Shown: positions 32,122 through 54,880 of the stretch, one piece after another
Layout of the letters: every line of letters begins with the position of its first letter
Numbering within the stretch: the first letter of the stretch is position 1
Assembly: GCF_003946085.1 (NCBI RefSeq)
Contig: NZ_RHOB01000009.1
Coordinates: 62,001-126,000, forward strand
Reading direction: 5' to 3'
From: Levilactobacillus angrenensis
GTDB taxonomy: Bacteria; Bacillota; Bacilli; Lactobacillales; Lactobacillaceae
Length of the DNA stretch: 64,000 nucleotides
Notes under the pieces: model-generated
What the model was told of the DNA's origin: nothing
What the model saw: the letters and a program-made list of their open reading frames with translations, nothing else
The model's database searches: none
Translations under genes and position numbers: made by a program

Positions 32122-32246
32122 ACTACAATCCAAATATTAAGGAGAGTACAGGATTTAAGCTTCCCATAATGCCGGCCTTTTAAGGCTGTTTGCGCAAAAA
32201 ACGTGCAAACAAATGTTTCTAAACTAAATTTGTTCCCCCAATTACC

Positions 32247-35083: not shown

Positions 35084-35512
35084 CTAAGATTCACTTGCTG
35101 CCGAACTAGCTGGGGCTGCTGAACTCGTTTCAGCTGAGCCAGTGTCAATCGGAGCGCTAGTTGTTGCCAGCTGTGAGGACAAGTAGTCGACAGCCTCCAT
35201 CAAGCCTTGCTGAGTCAACGCATTGGCTGACTTAAGGCTTTTATTTTCAGTTTGCAATGACTCAACCTGTTTAAGCACTTGAGTATGCGGATCATAAGTT
35301 ACTTCGGCGTCTGGATCATCCACACACAACATTTGTGGCTTGCCGTCCGAACCTATGATTTGTTTTCCATTATCATCTAAGGCCGGTACTTGCTTCATCT
35401 TGACCATCTTCCAACCGATAAATTGGTCAACCCCGTAGGGAACCGGTCCTAAGGCGTACACGGCATAACCGTCCGGCTTATCAATCGGTGCGGTTGCGTA
35501 AATTGTTTTCAT
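35084..35512 (-). CDS. Tail-associated protein of unknown function
   Basis: The 142-residue product starts MKTIYATAPIDKPDGYAVYA, has a coiled-coil stretch (about residues 78-105) and a Ser/Ala-rich C-terminal tail. Its place between tail fibre/RT and the XkdX-like genes corresponds to XkdW of PBSX, but similarity is not evident. ATG 35512 follows GGAG at good spacing; a TTG three codons earlier is too close. It overlaps the reverse transcriptase gene by 32 bases. It does not look like the Avd protein of DGRs. Confidence 0.65.
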   Translation of the reverse strand: MKTIYATAPIDKPDGYAVYALGPVPYGVDQFIGWKMVKMKQVPALDDNGKQIIGSDGKPQMLCVDDPDAEVTYDPHTQVLKQVESLQTENKSLKSANALTQQGLMEAVDYLSSQLATTSAPIDTGSAETSSAAPASSAASES

Positions 35513-36530
35513 GTTTGACAATCTCCTTTGCTTTTTTGATCGAACAGTTGGGTTTCACATACTTATGATAGAAGCCATATGAGTTGGTGTGCTTTAGCCA
35601 GCCCCAGTAGCTAATCATACTGGCCGCATCATGGTACGTTAGGTGGTCTTTACGCCCAACTTTGGCTGCCTTCCTACGAATCCGGAGAGCTAACTTACGG
35701 CGTAAAGTGACATGGTCGCGGTAAAACCGATAGCCCAGAAAGTCAATCGGTCGACTACCAACTCGAAAAAGCTGCCAGTTAGGCTTGATGGCTAGTCCTT
35801 CGGCTTTAAGATAGGTATCCATCTGGTCACGGGATCGATGCAACTTCTTTTTGTTACCACTCAACATGACTAGGTCGTCCATATATCTGACATAGTGCGG
35901 TACCCGCCAGTTGTTTTTTACCTGATGATCAAAATCCTCCAGATAAAAGTTGGCCAGCCATTGTGAAGTATACAAGCCTAGTGGTAATCCCGGTGAGTAT
36001 GAGTCAATAATCGCCCCCAACAGTCGTAAAACTTGCGGATCTTTAAAACGGTGTTGCAGTTTTAGTTTCAGAATGTCTGTGTTGATTGAAGCGTAAAAGT
36101 GGTGAATATCCATCTTGAGACAATACTTGGTATGTTTGGGGTCGTTCTGTAACCACTTTGGGATCACCTTGCGCCCCTGAGCCATCCCACGACCGGGAAC
36201 GGTGGCCAGATTGTACTCATACATGCTTTTTAAAAAGATTGGCTGCAGCACCAACATAATCGACCAGTGAATAATTTGGTCCGGGAAAAACGGGGTTGTG
36301 GTTATTTGACGGTCCTTATCCATTTCATGGGCTGTCCATGTTTTGACTTTGGCCGGCTTGAATTCACCCGACAGCAATAAATACTGGATCTGCTGAATCG
36401 TTTCTTCTTCATGGCTGAGCCTTCGGCTCACCGACTTTCGGTGCCGTTTTCCAATGGCTGCCTGGTGAAGTGCTAACTTAATGGTTTCCGGATCCGCAAT
36501 ATCATGGATCAAATTACCATAGCGTTTCAA
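35481..36530 (-). CDS. Reverse transcriptase of a diversity-generating retroelement
   Basis: The enzyme copies the template-repeat RNA with errors at adenines, and the cDNA replaces the variable repeat of the tail fibre. The 349 residues show the RT palm: SMYEYNLATVPGRGMAQG (about 102-119), catalytic Asp 141 in CLKMDIHHFYASI, GLPLGLYTSQWLANFYL (181-197, with the SQ pair typical of DGR enzymes) and YMDD at 216-219. A thumb-like region follows (FLGYRF, about 264). There is no maturase or endonuclease domain, as expected for this class. The start is TTG 36530 after AAGGAAG. It lies 146 bases after the template repeat. Confidence 0.95.
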   Translation of the reverse strand: MKRYGNLIHDIADPETIKLALHQAAIGKRHRKSVSRRLSHEEETIQQIQYLLLSGEFKPAKVKTWTAHEMDKDRQITTTPFFPDQIIHWSIMLVLQPIFLKSMYEYNLATVPGRGMAQGRKVIPKWLQNDPKHTKYCLKMDIHHFYASINTDILKLKLQHRFKDPQVLRLLGAIIDSYSPGLPLGLYTSQWLANFYLEDFDHQVKNNWRVPHYVRYMDDLVMLSGNKKKLHRSRDQMDTYLKAEGLAIKPNWQLFRVGSRPIDFLGYRFYRDHVTLRRKLALRIRRKAAKVGRKDHLTYHDAASMISYWGWLKHTNSYGFYHKYVKPNCSIKKAKEIVKHENNLRNRTD

Positions 36531-36675
36531 TCAATCACTTCCTTCTGAATTTAAATAACTTATTAACCTCAAGAACTTTCAATTTACTTACTAGCCCCTG
36601 CTTTGTAGCGGCGAATTTTTACCAAGTGGTACGGAGTCGTTGATGCATTACTTGTGTTTGCCGTGTTTCAGTTAA

Positions 36676-36776
36676 TATGGAGGCGAGAGCCGACATTGGA
36701 GTTCGTGTCAGACGACGAGTTGTTGCCGTTCCAGTACCAAAGACCGGAGTTGCCAGCGTTCCAATTCCAGCTGCCT
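36676..36776 (-). repeat. DGR template repeat (TR)
   Basis: 101 bases that align without gaps to the variable repeat at an offset of 162. On the coding strand it has 23 adenines, of which 14 differ in the VR; the other 78 bases are identical. In the VR frame it would read as AAC/AAT-rich codons (G-S-W-N-W-N-A-G-N...), the usual design that allows wide amino-acid change without stops. It is non-coding here, between target gene and RT. Confidence 0.95.
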
Positions 36777-36797
36777 GCATCAACAATCCCAAAAGTC

Positions 36798-36817
36798 CTG
36801 GGGGAGAAATCCCCCAG
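36798..36817 (-). promoter_or_regulatory. DGR target-recognition hairpin downstream of VR
   Basis: CTGGGGGA pairs perfectly with TCCCCCAG around a 4-nt loop (TTTC on the coding strand, GAAA on the other). It begins 20 bases past the VR, right after the tail-fibre stop codon. An 8-bp GC-rich stem with a 4-nt loop at this place is known to be required for retrohoming in the Bordetella phage DGR. Confidence 0.85.
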
Positions 36818-36823
36818 ACCTCC

Positions 36824-39493
36824 TTACAAAGCCTTCTTAAGGAGGCGAGAGCCGACATAGGAGTACGCGTCAGACGACGAGTAGCTGCCGTACCAGAACC
36901 AAAGACCGGAGCTGCCAGCGTGCCAAAACCAGCCGCCACCAGTGTAGACCACATAGTTACCACTGCCATAAACATAGCCATAGTCATGATAGTAAGTGTT
37001 GTATGAATCACTATTGAAAGAAGTTGGCGCCGTTACTCCAGGATGCTCCTTATCAAATCCAAGGCCAGTAATATTTCCATTCTCAGAATTTAATGAATAA
37101 TTGAGCTTGTAATAGGGACTTGTGAACACGTCTGACGCATACTTAGTTGCGTCATCGCATGAGTATAGAGACAAGCTATTAATGTTTAATCCGTCTGTCC
37201 ACATTGCCAAGTTTCCATAGAGATTTTCAATCCCGCGGTAAGTCATTGGTTTGGCACCGCTGGTTACAAATCCAGATGACCCTTTCACATTGTCAGTAGC
37301 TCCGTTGTTCATTAAGGAGTTCCCAGTATTGTCGGTGTTCCCTTTCATAATTGACTGGGAATCGAGAGTAGCGAATTCAATCGTGAACAGAACTTGCAAG
37401 GCGTCTAGTGTATGCACGTCCCACAAGTGATAGCCCTTCTTACCATCTGTGTTATTAGCAACCGCTGAACTTCTTAGCTGAACAATAGTTTGACTAGCTG
37501 TTGGCGTAGCTCCAGTTTTTGACTGTAATTTGCCTGAAGCAATCGACCCTTCGTATCGGGAAACATCGACATAGTCTAGCTCTTTCTTATTGCCAAAATC
37601 ATAGAAGCAGTTTGGCAAATACCAATCGTCGCCTTGCTTAACCAACGAAACTTGCCAAGTGCTTAATGGTTTATTTTTGTCTTGGGTTTTACGGATGTAG
37701 AATTTTGGCACGCGAACAAACGTGTTGCCATACGAATCGGTGACGGTTTTGTCCATCAATCCCCATGGGCCACGAGTATCAAAGTCGTTTTGAGCGCCAT
37801 TGATACCAGCTTTTAGACCCACCGCAGCATCGGTCCGCTGTAAGGCACCAGATGAAGAACCATCCCAACTAACGCCGTAAATGTTACCGTCAACGGTTGG
37901 CAATGGGTCGCTGACCGTAAAGTAGCCGCTTGACCCGGCTGCATTTTCAGCATTAAGGCGGAACAAGTAATCACTTCCAGCTTCAATGCCATCAGTAACC
38001 GTCCCAGTAAGGCTATCAGGATTTAGTGCAACTTTCATCCAGTCCGTGCTGCCTTGCTTTTGATACTCCAGGCTGTATCCGGTTATTTCAGAGCCACCAT
38101 CACTTTTTGGTGCCGTGACCGTGTAGTCGAAACCTTTTTTGCCAGCGTCGTACTCAACTGTCAGTGACGGGATTCCCGGCACTACGGCGGTCCCCAAAGT
38201 AATCACATCAGTATAGTCACTGGAACCCACCGCGTTTTGGGCTGCTGCTTTGAAGTCATACGTCTTCGGAATGTCAACGCCAGTGAGCTGGCCGGTTAAG
38301 TCATCTGGCTTAACAATGACCGTTGTCCAGTCATCCACGCTATGATCTTTCCACAGCAAATTGTACTGTAGGATGTCACTGAAACCGTCCTTCTCAGGCG
38401 CAGTCAGTGTATAGTCAAAGGCTTTGCTAGTTGCGTTGTACTTAACTGCCAGCTTTGGAATTCCAGGCGTCTTCGCTGTTAGAATCCATTTCCATATGGT
38501 TGTAGTACCGTTATAAGTGAAGCTCCACATCGCCCCGTCTGGACCTATCCCGTAGCCGGTAACTAAGCCGTCAAAATCGCAGAAATATTCTCCAATAAGC
38601 GAATGACCAGTTGGGTTATTTTTAGCGTCAATGTCAACTAAGAGCTTGCCGGTATCTTTGGTGCCGATAATCGCTTTCAGTTTGGTATCCACGTCTTCCC
38701 CACTAGCAATCACAAATTTAGCGGAGCCATCGTCACCAGTTAATTTATGTTTTTGCCAGTTAACAGTGTCCGCAGCCTTGACCTTGTCGCCAACCTGTGT
38801 GTCCGCATATTCCTTGGCCGATGTGAGTGCTTCCGCGTCGCCATCGGAAACATCCTTGGTGGTCGCAATGGCATTGCCTTCACCGTCCACCGCACCCTTT
38901 TCCAGCGTGACGGATTCCTTGAAATCCGCCGGCTTGCTACCATCGATGACGGTGGCAGGGATAAGGCTTTTTACATCGTCCGTTTTGACGTAATCGGCCA
39001 AGGTCACCTTCAATTCCTCGTTGGTCACTGCACCAGCTGGGTTGATTGATAGGTCGACGTTACTGGATTGACCCACTACAGTTTCCAGATCAATTCCTAA
39101 AGCCGACCCCATTGCATCTTGATGGATATAAACGGGATCTTTTAACACGGTGACACTGTACAGCACCTCCTTACCATCACCATCGACAGCGAACAATCCA
39201 ACCGAATTCATTTGATAATCATTTGGTGCTTTTGTTTGGTCGATTGCGATATTTACATCCACCGTGCTGTCATTGATGACTGTCACGGTATTAATGTCAG
39301 CCGTTTGCTGAACGTTATCCAGCGACGTTAGGACTTGTAGCTCGGTAACCGACTGATTAAAAAGATTAGTGGTACTGATTTCTGCTTTGGTAAATTTGGC
39401 CGTTGTTTTATTGGCGATAAGCCGTGCGGCTATTGACTGGGCGGCAGTCGTGAAGATGGTTGTTGCGCTTCTCTGCTCGTCATTACTTGCCAC
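36824..39493 (-). CDS. Tail fibre/adhesin, DGR target protein with C-type-lectin-like end
   Basis: The 889-residue protein is the receptor-binding candidate. Residues 1-140 resemble tail-fibre attachment domains. Two fibronectin type III-like repeats follow (about 335-430 and 432-520; each starts PGIP and ends with a GSSDYT- or GSSGYF-like motif). The C-terminal part (about 530-889) has the sulfatase-modifying/C-lectin-type fold marks (YRGIENLYGNLAMWTDGLNI, about 785). Residues 853-885 are encoded by the variable repeat. Twelve of these residues differ from what the template would give, among them Phe 856, His 858, Tyr 868, Tyr 871, Tyr 877 and Tyr 879, probably on the exposed binding face. 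Confidence 0.93.
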   Translation of the reverse strand: MASNDEQRSATTIFTTAAQSIAARLIANKTTAKFTKAEISTTNLFNQSVTELQVLTSLDNVQQTADINTVTVINDSTVDVNIAIDQTKAPNDYQMNSVGLFAVDGDGKEVLYSVTVLKDPVYIHQDAMGSALGIDLETVVGQSSNVDLSINPAGAVTNEELKVTLADYVKTDDVKSLIPATVIDGSKPADFKESVTLEKGAVDGEGNAIATTKDVSDGDAEALTSAKEYADTQVGDKVKAADTVNWQKHKLTGDDGSAKFVIASGEDVDTKLKAIIGTKDTGKLLVDIDAKNNPTGHSLIGEYFCDFDGLVTGYGIGPDGAMWSFTYNGTTTIWKWILTAKTPGIPKLAVKYNATSKAFDYTLTAPEKDGFSDILQYNLLWKDHSVDDWTTVIVKPDDLTGQLTGVDIPKTYDFKAAAQNAVGSSDYTDVITLGTAVVPGIPSLTVEYDAGKKGFDYTVTAPKSDGGSEITGYSLEYQKQGSTDWMKVALNPDSLTGTVTDGIEAGSDYLFRLNAENAAGSSGYFTVSDPLPTVDGNIYGVSWDGSSSGALQRTDAAVGLKAGINGAQNDFDTRGPWGLMDKTVTDSYGNTFVRVPKFYIRKTQDKNKPLSTWQVSLVKQGDDWYLPNCFYDFGNKKELDYVDVSRYEGSIASGKLQSKTGATPTASQTIVQLRSSAVANNTDGKKGYHLWDVHTLDALQVLFTIEFATLDSQSIMKGNTDNTGNSLMNNGATDNVKGSSGFVTSGAKPMTYRGIENLYGNLAMWTDGLNINSLSLYSCDDATKYASDVFTSPYYKLNYSLNSENGNITGLGFDKEHPGVTAPTSFNSDSYNTYYHDYGYVYGSGNYVVYTGGGWFWHAGSSGLWFWYGSYSSSDAYSYVGSRLLKKAL
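36838..36938 (-). repeat. DGR variable repeat (VR), 3' end of the tail-fibre gene
   Basis: 101 bases, ungapped against the template. The 14 differences (coding strand A to T nine times, A to G four, A to C once) are all at template adenines. The distal end (GTCGGCTCTCGCCTCC) is identical in both repeats and is the likely initiation point of mutagenic homology. Confidence 0.95.
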
Positions 39494-53648: not shown

Positions 53649-53849
53649 TCACTTCGATGGGACCAGGGCTAGCAAGTCAGCTTTAACCGTCTTGCCAGTG
53701 TGGTCGACATCATGATCATCAAGCCAAGCCGTGATTTCAGCGACCGTGTTGGCTGACGTCGGCTTCACATCAGGGGTGCTTTCGGTGATTGTGGCGCCAT
53801 CAGCGGTAGGCGTGACGGTTAGCTTCTCGGGTGCTGGCGCCTTTACGCT
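53649..53849 (-). CDS. Frameshift extension of the major capsid protein, HeH-like domain
   Basis: This frame lies -1 to the capsid gene and has no start codon. Slippery heptamer C-CCA-AAA (53855-53849) sits two codons before the capsid stop; seven bases later GGCGCCA can pair with TGGCGCC (53841-53835 with 53799-53793). The 66-residue extension contains the PTADGATITES cassette and a helix-extension-helix-like end (TVAEITAWLDDHDVD, then KADLLALVP). The same heptamer drives frameshifting in virion genes of Lactobacillus phage A2. The long form would have 410 residues. Confidence 0.78.
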   Translation of the reverse strand, partial: SVKAPAPEKLTVTPTADGATITESTPDVKPTSANTVAEITAWLDDHDVDHTGKTVKADLLALVPSK

Positions 53850-54880
53850 TTTGGGTCGTCATCCGTGCTGTCAGCCTTTGGCGAGTTGATGGTTGGAACC
53901 ACAAACTGGCTAGCGACCTTAAATCCATACTTGACGATGCCCAGCTTACGTGGGTCCGTGGCCACCTTGAAGACAGGCTTACCGTCTTCGATAGCTTGCC
54001 GGTACCCACTGATGCTGGATACCACGGAGGTATCGATATCGGTCCCGATGACTTGCATCGCTGAGACCCGCTTTTGGATGATGGCTTCGACCCCACCGTT
54101 CTTAAACTCGTCTCGCGTGATGACAAAGGCGTTAGCTGGGTTGGCAGTCGCGTAGGCTACGGAGCCTGGTGCAAAGGCATAAGCCGCCGTGGTCCCGTCA
54201 GCGGCGACTGGGATATCATCGTCTTGGATGATTTGAAGTCCGTTGTAGTACGAGATTGGCGCTCCGCCTTCGGATGGCTTGACGTCATCAATCAGGTTCT
54301 GTGCCCGCATTTCAAAGTAGGCACTCGAATTCATAGCCAATTTGACTAACTTTGGGTTAGCCATGTCGCCCATCCGAGCGAGTGCGGCCAATAAGTCCCC
54401 AGCGGACAGTTCCTTTTCAGTGCCGACCCCGTAGGACTTAGCCGTCAAAATGTCAGCGTTAGCGTAGGTCGCATTTAAGACGTTCAGCAGACGCTTCATG
54501 TCTTGACGTACCCAGAATTCGGAGAACCGACTGATAATCTGTGACCGAACCGGTGCTCCCGTGACCAATTGGCCGAAGTCAGTGGCCGAGTAGGATTTGT
54601 TATCAAACACTTTCATGGCTTGGCTGATACCAGTCGTCAGCGAGTCAGTGTCGATATCCTTGGTGTCGCTCCATTCTTCGGCGTCCCCTGGCAAATCGTT
54701 GATGTACGGCATGTCAATGGTCCGTCCGGGCTGAAGCAGTCGGCTTCCCCATACAGGGTCTGCACCCAGCACACCGCTCTTGATGAAGGCGTTCGTGTTG
54801 CTGACCTGTTCTTGCACGTAGTCCAGAAAGACTTGTGGTTCAATCAAGTCGGCGAGTGAAGTAATCTTTGTAAATGCCAT
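53843..54880 (-). CDS. Major capsid protein
   Basis: The 345-residue protein follows the scaffold gene, the standard place. It has the N-terminal LADLIEPQVFLDYVQEQ segment, GRTIDMPYINDLPGDAEEW, and a long beta-rich domain of the HK97 type. It ends with an acidic tail containing the CCCAAAA frameshift site, so a minority of subunits probably carries a C-terminal surface domain. Confidence 0.88.
   Translation of the reverse strand: MAFTKITSLADLIEPQVFLDYVQEQVSNTNAFIKSGVLGADPVWGSRLLQPGRTIDMPYINDLPGDAEEWSDTKDIDTDSLTTGISQAMKVFDNKSYSATDFGQLVTGAPVRSQIISRFSEFWVRQDMKRLLNVLNATYANADILTAKSYGVGTEKELSAGDLLAALARMGDMANPKLVKLAMNSSAYFEMRAQNLIDDVKPSEGGAPISYYNGLQIIQDDDIPVAADGTTAAYAFAPGSVAYATANPANAFVITRDEFKNGGVEAIIQKRVSAMQVIGTDIDTSVVSSISGYRQAIEDGKPVFKVATDPRKLGIVKYGFKVASQFVVPTINSPKADSTDDDPKA

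What the first reader, a model, noticed from the sequence alone, without database searches (positions are those of the whole stretch)
35481..39493. Complete diversity-generating retroelement in the tail-fibre module of a Lactobacillaceae prophage
The template repeat (36676-36776) and variable repeat (36838-36938) align without gaps over 101 bases. All 14 differences are at template adenines of the coding strand; all 78 other bases and 9 of 23 adenines are unchanged. The adjacent reverse transcriptase has YMDD and the DGR-type TSQ motif. The variable repeat encodes residues 853-885 of an 889-residue tail fibre with a C-lectin-like end. Established knowledge (Bordetella phage BPP-1) says such an element diversifies the receptor-binding tip by adenine mutagenesis and so switches host range. 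Here it would tune recognition of lactobacillar cell surfaces.
Basis: partly seen in the sequence, partly recalled or inferred. Interest (0 to 1): 0.95.

Follow-up and report, generated by a model that had tools for sequence, protein, structure and literature searches.

The report
Self-mutating tail tip in lactobacillus prophage
A dormant virus inside a lactic-acid bacterium carries a known kind of built-in mutation machine that rewrites the tip of its tail fibre; comparison with relatives indicates that such machines have really been working, here in a compact form without the usual helper protein and with a conserved RNA beside it.

Summary
[quoted passage not shown] The adjoining gene is a diversity-generating-retroelement (DGR) reverse transcriptase by sequence. 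The fibre tip is predicted to have the C-type-lectin fold of known DGR variable proteins.

In 12 elements of the lactobacillar type, the window included, 144 of 274 template adenines are changed against 5 of 913 other bases; two pairs with identical templates have very different VRs. A relative that lost TR and RT keeps a stranded VR with three non-adenine departures. So A-directed rewriting has occurred in these elements; receptor binding and host-range switching are inferred.

The cassette is not a BPP-1 copy. No Avd gene was found, an architecture already in print. Its TR-RT spacer holds Rfam RF03021 (RT-18). RT-18 lies just upstream of the RT in 12 of 12 lactobacillar-type RT loci and 33 of 40 phage relatives scanned, and covaries strongly. 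Linking RT-18 to an Avd-less DGR branch is the new lead; the finding itself is a new member of a known kind.

The parts
36824..39493 (-). Tail fibre / target gene, 889 aa; fibronectin-III domain at about residues 459-522, lectin-like tip at the C end
36827..37822 (-). C-type-lectin (FGE subtype) tip domain, residues 558-889
   Evidence: AlphaFold2 pLDDT 91.7, pTM 0.93; TaqVP 5vf4 Z 28.2
36838..36938 (-). Variable repeat (VR), codons 853-885
36798..36817 (-). GC-rich hairpin, 8-bp stem CTGGGGGA/TCCCCCAG with a 4-base loop, 20 bases after the VR
36676..36776 (-). Template repeat (TR)
36556..36631 (-). Structured spacer RNA, Rfam RF03021 RT-18 (53.1 bits, gathering score 41.3)
35481..36530 (-). 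DGR reverse transcriptase, 349 aa, YMDD and GLYTSQ
35262..38770 (-). Stretch holding the distal fibre, DGR and start of the next gene, apparently exchanged between phages as a module (approximate bounds)
35084..35521 (-). Downstream phage gene overlapping the end of the RT; kept in a relative that lost the RT, so probably not a DGR accessory

Best explanation
This is a functional-looking diversity-generating retroelement of the compact, Avd-less type in the tail module of a complete-looking prophage of a Levilactobacillus-type host. An RNA is made from the TR and the spacer behind it. The spacer folds into the RT-18 structure, which I infer recruits the RT and sets the start of cDNA synthesis. 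The RT copies the TR with random errors opposite adenines, and the cDNA replaces the VR, helped by the hairpin just behind the VR. The result is a fibre tip with about 2.6e12 reachable peptides and no reachable stop codon. Shown from sequence: A-only differences, independent rewriting in related elements, RT kinship, RNA covariation, hairpin conservation; predicted: the fold. Inferred: the RNA's role, retrohoming itself, receptor binding and host-range effect.
For: 14 of 14 differences at template A. 144 of 274 A against 5 of 913 non-A changed in 12 elements, window included. L019 and L034 have identical templates (98 bases) but VRs with 16 differences, 16 at template A; L017 and L035 have identical templates (99 bases), 19 VR differences, 18 at A. 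In L004 and L010 a non-A template change relative to the sisters is also in their own VR, as TR-to-VR copying predicts. RT: 8ub7_A E 3.3e-54, next 4.9e-27. Fibre tip: TaqVP 5vf4 Z 28.2, 2.7 A over 263 residues; Mtd Z 13.5-14.4. RT-18 just upstream of the RT in 12 of 12 lactobacillar-type RT loci, and in exactly the 9 of 397 family genomes that hold the RT. Hairpin in 12 of 12 of these cassettes that have a TR/VR pair. Reachable diversity.
Against: No population or expression data. The identical record L002 shows no VR variation and is probably the same strain. BPP-1 needs Avd (PMC12875486, passages), and none was found here, so the mechanism cannot be identical unless an unrecognised protein serves. 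Three of the 12 elements (L013, L017, L022) have 2, 1 and 2 non-A differences although their RTs have no stops.
Confidence: 0.92

Rival explanations
1. Silent fossil: the element diversified in the past but is now inactive in this prophage, and the VR is fixed.
For: No population data. A related prophage (L027/L032) has lost TR and RT and keeps a stranded VR; L054 lacks the RT N-terminus beside its TR and has 3 non-A mismatches.
Against: Here the RT is full length with its motifs, TR and VR match at all 78 non-A positions, and RNA and hairpin are intact. In L027 the VR departs from all four sister templates at 3 never-A sites; the same leave-one-out count for the four intact sisters is 0, 0, 1, 1.
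Confidence: 0.1
2. Ordinary tandem duplication of the fibre end, with adenine bias by chance or by selection on the coding frame.
For: The repeats are adjacent and at the gene's 3' end.
Against: Probability 1.6e-11 for adenine confinement, same pattern in 11 further elements, RT and structured RNA beside it.
Confidence: 0.005
3. The RT serves another purpose (anti-phage defence RT or group II intron remnant) and lies beside the repeats by chance.
For: NCBIfam profiles of group II, retron and DRT reverse transcriptases match, all below their curated cut-offs; PADLOC's generic RT profile matches at 2.2e-33 and DRT profiles more weakly.
Against: Best solved relative is the 8ub7 series RT, 27 orders of magnitude ahead of the next; PHROG 1423 E 2e-102; TR/VR pairs found beside 61 of 73 RT relatives.
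Confidence: 0.005

Closest known systems
BPP-1 diversity-generating retroelement (Bordetella phage)
   Same: VR at the 3' end of the target gene, TR followed by a structured spacer RNA and the RT, A-directed differences; hairpin behind the VR (PMC3240598, passages)
   Different: BPP-1 has avd between VR and TR and Rfam RF03022 (Phage_DGR) in the spacer; here no avd was found, and the spacer holds RF03021 (RT-18)
Avd-less 'target gene-TR-RT' DGRs (lineage 3 as described for crAssphage LMMB, PMC7290462, passages)
   Same: Same architecture, no avd, C-type-lectin variable domain
   Different: LMMB's RT lies outside the RT-18 group in the tree and its locus has no RT-18 match at gathering score
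Lactobacillus phage LBR48
   Same: RT 52% identical to the window's, RT-18; its template equals that of L034 over 98 of 98 bases
   Different: The deposited record lacks the VR and has ambiguous bases nearby; its RT motif is NIDD
TaqVP variable protein (PDB 5VF4, Thermus aquaticus prophage DGR)
   Same: FGE-subtype C-type-lectin fold with the VR at the C terminus (PMC6328139, passages)
   Different: TaqVP is a single-domain monomer; here the domain ends an 889-residue fibre with an Fn3 domain

Membership tests
Diversity-generating retroelement | TR/VR pair whose differences lie at template adenines | tested here: met
   14 of 14
Diversity-generating retroelement | DGR-type RT adjacent, with YxDD and xGxxxSQ (motifs recalled) | tested here: met
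   YMDD, GLYTSQ; 8ub7_A E 3.3e-54
Diversity-generating retroelement | VR at the 3' end of a target gene with a known DGR variable fold | tested here: met
   codons 853-885 of 889; C-type-lectin fold of the predicted model
Diversity-generating retroelement | RT-dependent mutagenic retrohoming | not testable with these tools
   needs culture and an RT mutant; only natural variants seen
BPP-1-type DGR | Accessory protein Avd (Pfam PF22296) | tested here: not met
   0 matches in the own genome, cassette included; the same search rings in Prosthecochloris (41), BPP-1 (64), VP58.5, BalMu-1 and Fischerella (85)
BPP-1-type DGR | Hairpin 4-34 bases after VR with 4-base loop 5'-GRNA | tested here: inconclusive
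   8-bp stem, 4-base loop, 20 bases after VR; the loop reads GAAA on the plus strand here, but 7 of 12 lactobacillar-type loops fit GRNA on neither strand (my reading)
Rfam RF03021 RT-18 | Score above the family's gathering threshold | tested here: met
   53.1 bits against 41.3
Intact prophage | Structural, packaging, lysis, regulator and integrase genes between attachment-site repeats | tested here: met
   sheath, baseplate, tape measure, GH25 endolysin, integrase, HTH regulator, antirepressor, RecT, portal, terminase; exact 19-bp repeat at 32138 and window-equivalent 76063. The one capsid candidate scanned (53843-54880) had no Pfam match; inducibility not tested

The most novel reading that the evidence does not exclude
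The Rfam RNA family RT-18 is the cDNA-priming and RT-recruiting part of the template RNA of a large, Avd-independent branch of phage DGRs. In this branch RNA and RT alone do what RT plus Avd does in BPP-1. The tip-plus-diversifier stretch moves between phages of different lactobacillar genera as one module.
Probability: 0.55. Interest if true: 0.65.

Novelty: new member of a known kind. Interest (0 to 1): 0.45.

Why it matters
It gives a compact DGR in a lactic-acid bacterium, with natural sister elements that share one template and differ in the VR. It ties an Rfam RNA, which the library lists only as 'RT-18 RNA', to the spacer of an Avd-less DGR branch. That makes a concrete question testable: how does a DGR copy and home without Avd, and does the spacer RNA take over its role? 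A two-part system (RNA plus RT) would also be simpler to move into laboratory hosts for targeted protein diversification.

Tried and rejected
First structure model (9-sequence alignment A1) was poor, pLDDT 40, and was not used. NCBIfam found nothing for the fibre. A search for a second VR in the host genome gave only the known pair. Avd stand-in PF05635 was not found in the own genome, but its control rang nowhere, so this is inconclusive; HRDC and MSL accessories were not searched. RT-18 was absent at gathering score from Butyrivibrio, crAss-like, Psychrobacillus and other more distant DGRs, so it is not a general DGR RNA; Epona, BT-TP2 and BalMu-1 have RT-4, RT-3 and RT-14 there instead. I considered that Avd-lessness is itself new and rejected it: PMC7290462 (passages) says about a quarter of DGRs lack the accessory gene and describes a lineage that does. 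Template evolution by self-mutagenesis (about 4 of 8 template changes among four sister elements look like A to non-A, my hand count) is too few to judge. TR/VR pairs were missing for 12 of 73 RT relatives, 9 of them with under 500 bases upstream, and one found pair (L207) is probably chance; 7 of the 80 loci were not put into that script. The RT tree dropped one row with six stops (L057). Protein comparison of the tip with its own alignment told nothing. Papers: searches gave no title or abstract start that links RT-18 with DGRs (10 of 50, 4 of 4 and 15 of 17 papers listed); the paper that defined this set of RNAs is not held, so it may make the link itself. PMC8143477, a DGR phage paper that cites it, does so for protein domains (sections 3.3, 3.4 and Discussion read). 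One search (DGR with Lactobacillus, 25 of 28 papers listed) and 123 (LBR48, 1 paper) showed no title or abstract start about a lactobacillar DGR.

One search fetched a wrong paper from a guessed DOI; it was not used.

Full report
OBSERVATION. On the minus strand the TR (36776-36676) and VR (36938-36838) align without gaps over 101 bases. Fourteen differ, all at template adenines; all 78 other bases and 9 of 23 adenines agree; a chance placement has probability 1.6e-11. No third copy was found in the window or genome. The outer two differences touch non-homologous sequence. The one at 36678 (template CAT, VR CTT) recurs in L003, L010, L017 and L035, so I take it as a fixed template/target junction difference. 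About 12 sites are certain mutagenesis sites. The VR spans codons 853-885 of 889; 13 of 33 template codons contain A; no stop is reachable, and about 2.6e12 peptides are.

PARTS. Order on the minus strand: fibre with VR, hairpin, TR, spacer RNA, RT. The RT (349 aa) has YMDD and GLYTSQ, PHROG 1423 at E 2e-102, and as best solved relative 8ub7_A at 3.3e-54, against 4.9e-27 for the next, a group II intron-type RT. That 8ub7 is the BPP-1 enzyme is my reading of its length and my recall; the listing says only 'Reverse transcriptase', 328 residues. The fibre carries Fn3 and a tip that folds with pLDDT 91.7 from 45 sequences. Its best match is the DGR variable protein TaqVP (Foldseek E 6.6e-13; Z 28.2, 2.7 A over 263 residues), and Mtd follows at Z 13.5-14.4, among FGE-type enzymes with similar Z. 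The sequence profile agrees (1.7e-13). [quoted passage not shown] I could not compute exposure on this model.

THE PROPHAGE. Integrase, HTH regulator, antirepressor, RecT, portal and terminase are present, with sheath, baseplate and tape measure and endolysin. An exact 19-base repeat at 32138 and window-equivalent 76063 suggests attachment sites and a length near 43.9 kb.

NATURAL VARIANTS. I use 12 elements of the lactobacillar type: the window, L003, L004, L010, L013, L017, L019-L022, L034 and L035. The hosts of the IMG/VR contigs L003, L034 and L035 are not recorded; they are placed by similarity. Together they show 144 of 274 template adenines changed and 5 of 913 other positions; the A changes are 81 to G, 51 to T and 12 to C. 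Their VRs differ pairwise at 11-18 sites, 81 of 87 summed at positions that are A in one of the two templates; private non-A template changes in L004 and L010 also stand in their own VRs. L019/L034 and L017/L035 have identical templates and VRs with 16 (16 at A) and 19 (18 at A) differences. L002 is identical to the window over 10194 bases and adds nothing. Against strict purity: L013, L017 and L022 have 2, 1 and 2 non-A differences.

LOSS AS CONTROL. In L027 (same contig as L032) the stretch from the fibre stop to RT codon 331 is gone while the fibre and VR remain. Its VR departs from all four sister templates at three never-A sites; the leave-one-out figure for the intact sisters is 0, 0, 1, 1. 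The lost template itself is unknown, so this is suggestive. L054 lacks the RT N-terminus beside its TR and has three non-A mismatches. Incomplete DGR cassettes are already described in crAss-like phages (PMC7290462, passages).

AVD AND RT-18. Fibre stop to RT start is 293 bases, filled by hairpin, TR and spacer. bAvd (PF22296) was not found in 9 of 9 DGR-bearing Lactobacillaceae genomes, 3 of 3 other RT-18 genomes, or 48 of 48 phage contigs, many of them fragments. In one search it rang in 4 of 21 records, namely BPP-1, VP58.5, BalMu-1 and Fischerella; Prosthecochloris rang. Avd-less DGRs are in print (PMC7290462, passages), also in Faecalibacterium phages (PMC5883640, passages). The spacer matches Rfam RF03021, 'RT-18 RNA'; that RT stands for reverse transcriptase is my reading. 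It is in 12 of 12 lactobacillar-type RT loci given and 0 of the other 4 loci of that call: L014, L005, L011 and the RT-less L027. In a 397-genome family sample it rings in exactly the 9 that have the RT. In a phylum sample it rings in 4 of 398 including this one (G538 just under the cut-off); the other three are all DGRs by TR/VR, one with a broken RT. Of 80 phage loci found with an RT profile I scanned 40: 20 of 20 and 13 of 20 carry it, just upstream of the RT; for 3 of these 33 (L157, L190, L203) no TR/VR pair was found. BPP-1 has RF03022, Phage_DGR, in the same place. On 40 sequences 9 of 10 predicted pairs show double compensatory changes. For Rfam's own structure (17 of its 20 pairs could be mapped) 121 cells have double changes against 36.3 in shuffles (0 of 500 as high) and at most 26 when slid. 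Less decisive: the number of pairs with a double change (15) is reached by 70 of 500 shuffles and the number of pair types by 5 of 500, and one of four helices is weak, with 52% of cells paired. In a 71-row RT tree the 48 RT-18 rows and the 5 Avd rows fall on opposite sides of a branch (100/95). Nine rows scanned without an RT-18 match lie inside the RT-18 side, and two rows without a bAvd match (L006, L063) on the Avd side, so the labels are not perfectly clean.

HAIRPIN. A perfect stem of at least 6 pairs lies between VR and TR in 62 of 75 cassettes (some near copies of each other), and in 12 of 12 lactobacillar-type ones. With at least 4 G or C in the arm the count is 57, against 1 for same-length pieces of RT gene (pieces used only where room allowed; that number was not printed). 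In the lactobacillar set the stem changes in concert (CTGGGGGA or CCGGGGGA with its partner). BPP-1 work asks for loop GRNA (PMC3240598, passages); 7 of 12 loops here fit on neither strand.

MODULE. L004 shares fibre residues 241-852, RT and the first 86 residues of the next gene at 85-96%, but only 36-48% for the fibre start and baseplate and 23-54% for four genes beyond. L017 has the reverse: RT 59% and tip 53%, but two neighbour genes at 94% (one over part of its length). Tip and diversifier thus seem to travel together, also between genera.

HOW IT WORKS AND HOW SURE. Rewriting of the VR from the TR with errors at A is well supported. That the RT-18 RNA primes and recruits is inferred from position, covariation and the BPP-1 model (PMC12875486, passages). 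That Avd is dispensable rests on absence from the sequences searched; an unrecognised host or phage protein remains possible. Receptor binding and host-range change are inferred from BPP-1. Other DGR phages give support: in Bacuni phages of Bacteroides, nearly identical phages with different VRs infect different hosts (PMC8143477, sections 3.4 and Discussion read).

Noticed in passing
L027/L032 (IMGVR_UViG_2886212900_000002): Natural deletion of hairpin, TR and nearly all of the RT, leaving a stranded VR and 18 RT codons before the next gene.
   Followed up: yes
RTs of L019, L020, L021, L034 and LBR48 (L012): All five have NIDD at the catalytic motif where the window has YMDD, with no stops; L019-L021 and L034 nevertheless show 7-15 adenine-only changes.
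   Followed up: partly
LBR48 record NC_027990.1, both ends (L012, L025): The deposited genome lacks the VR and the fibre's end; three ambiguous bases lie within about 200 bases of the place, as if the VR did not assemble.
   Followed up: partly
L033 / L075 (IMGVR_UViG_2728369686_000001): A 46.8-kb contig ends inside the VR, as if assembly broke at the repeat or at VR heterogeneity.
   Followed up: no
L053 6759-6874: A second repeat copy between VR and TR has 26 of 28 template adenines changed plus 8 non-A changes; perhaps an old stranded VR or second target.
   Followed up: no
L011 6001-6942 (Clostridium sp. MAG): DGR RT with 5 in-frame stops in a standard reading, all five TAG; may come from a phage with a recoded TAG.
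   Followed up: partly
L060, L064, L066 spacers: Other Rfam RT-n families (RT-4, RT-3, RT-14) also lie between TR and RT of DGRs, so several of these RNAs may be DGR spacers.
   Followed up: partly
window 32138 and contig-equivalent 76063: Exact 19-base direct repeat, probable prophage attachment sites.
   Followed up: partly
window 35262-38770: Fibre tip and DGR look like one exchange module between otherwise different lactobacillar phages.
   Followed up: partly
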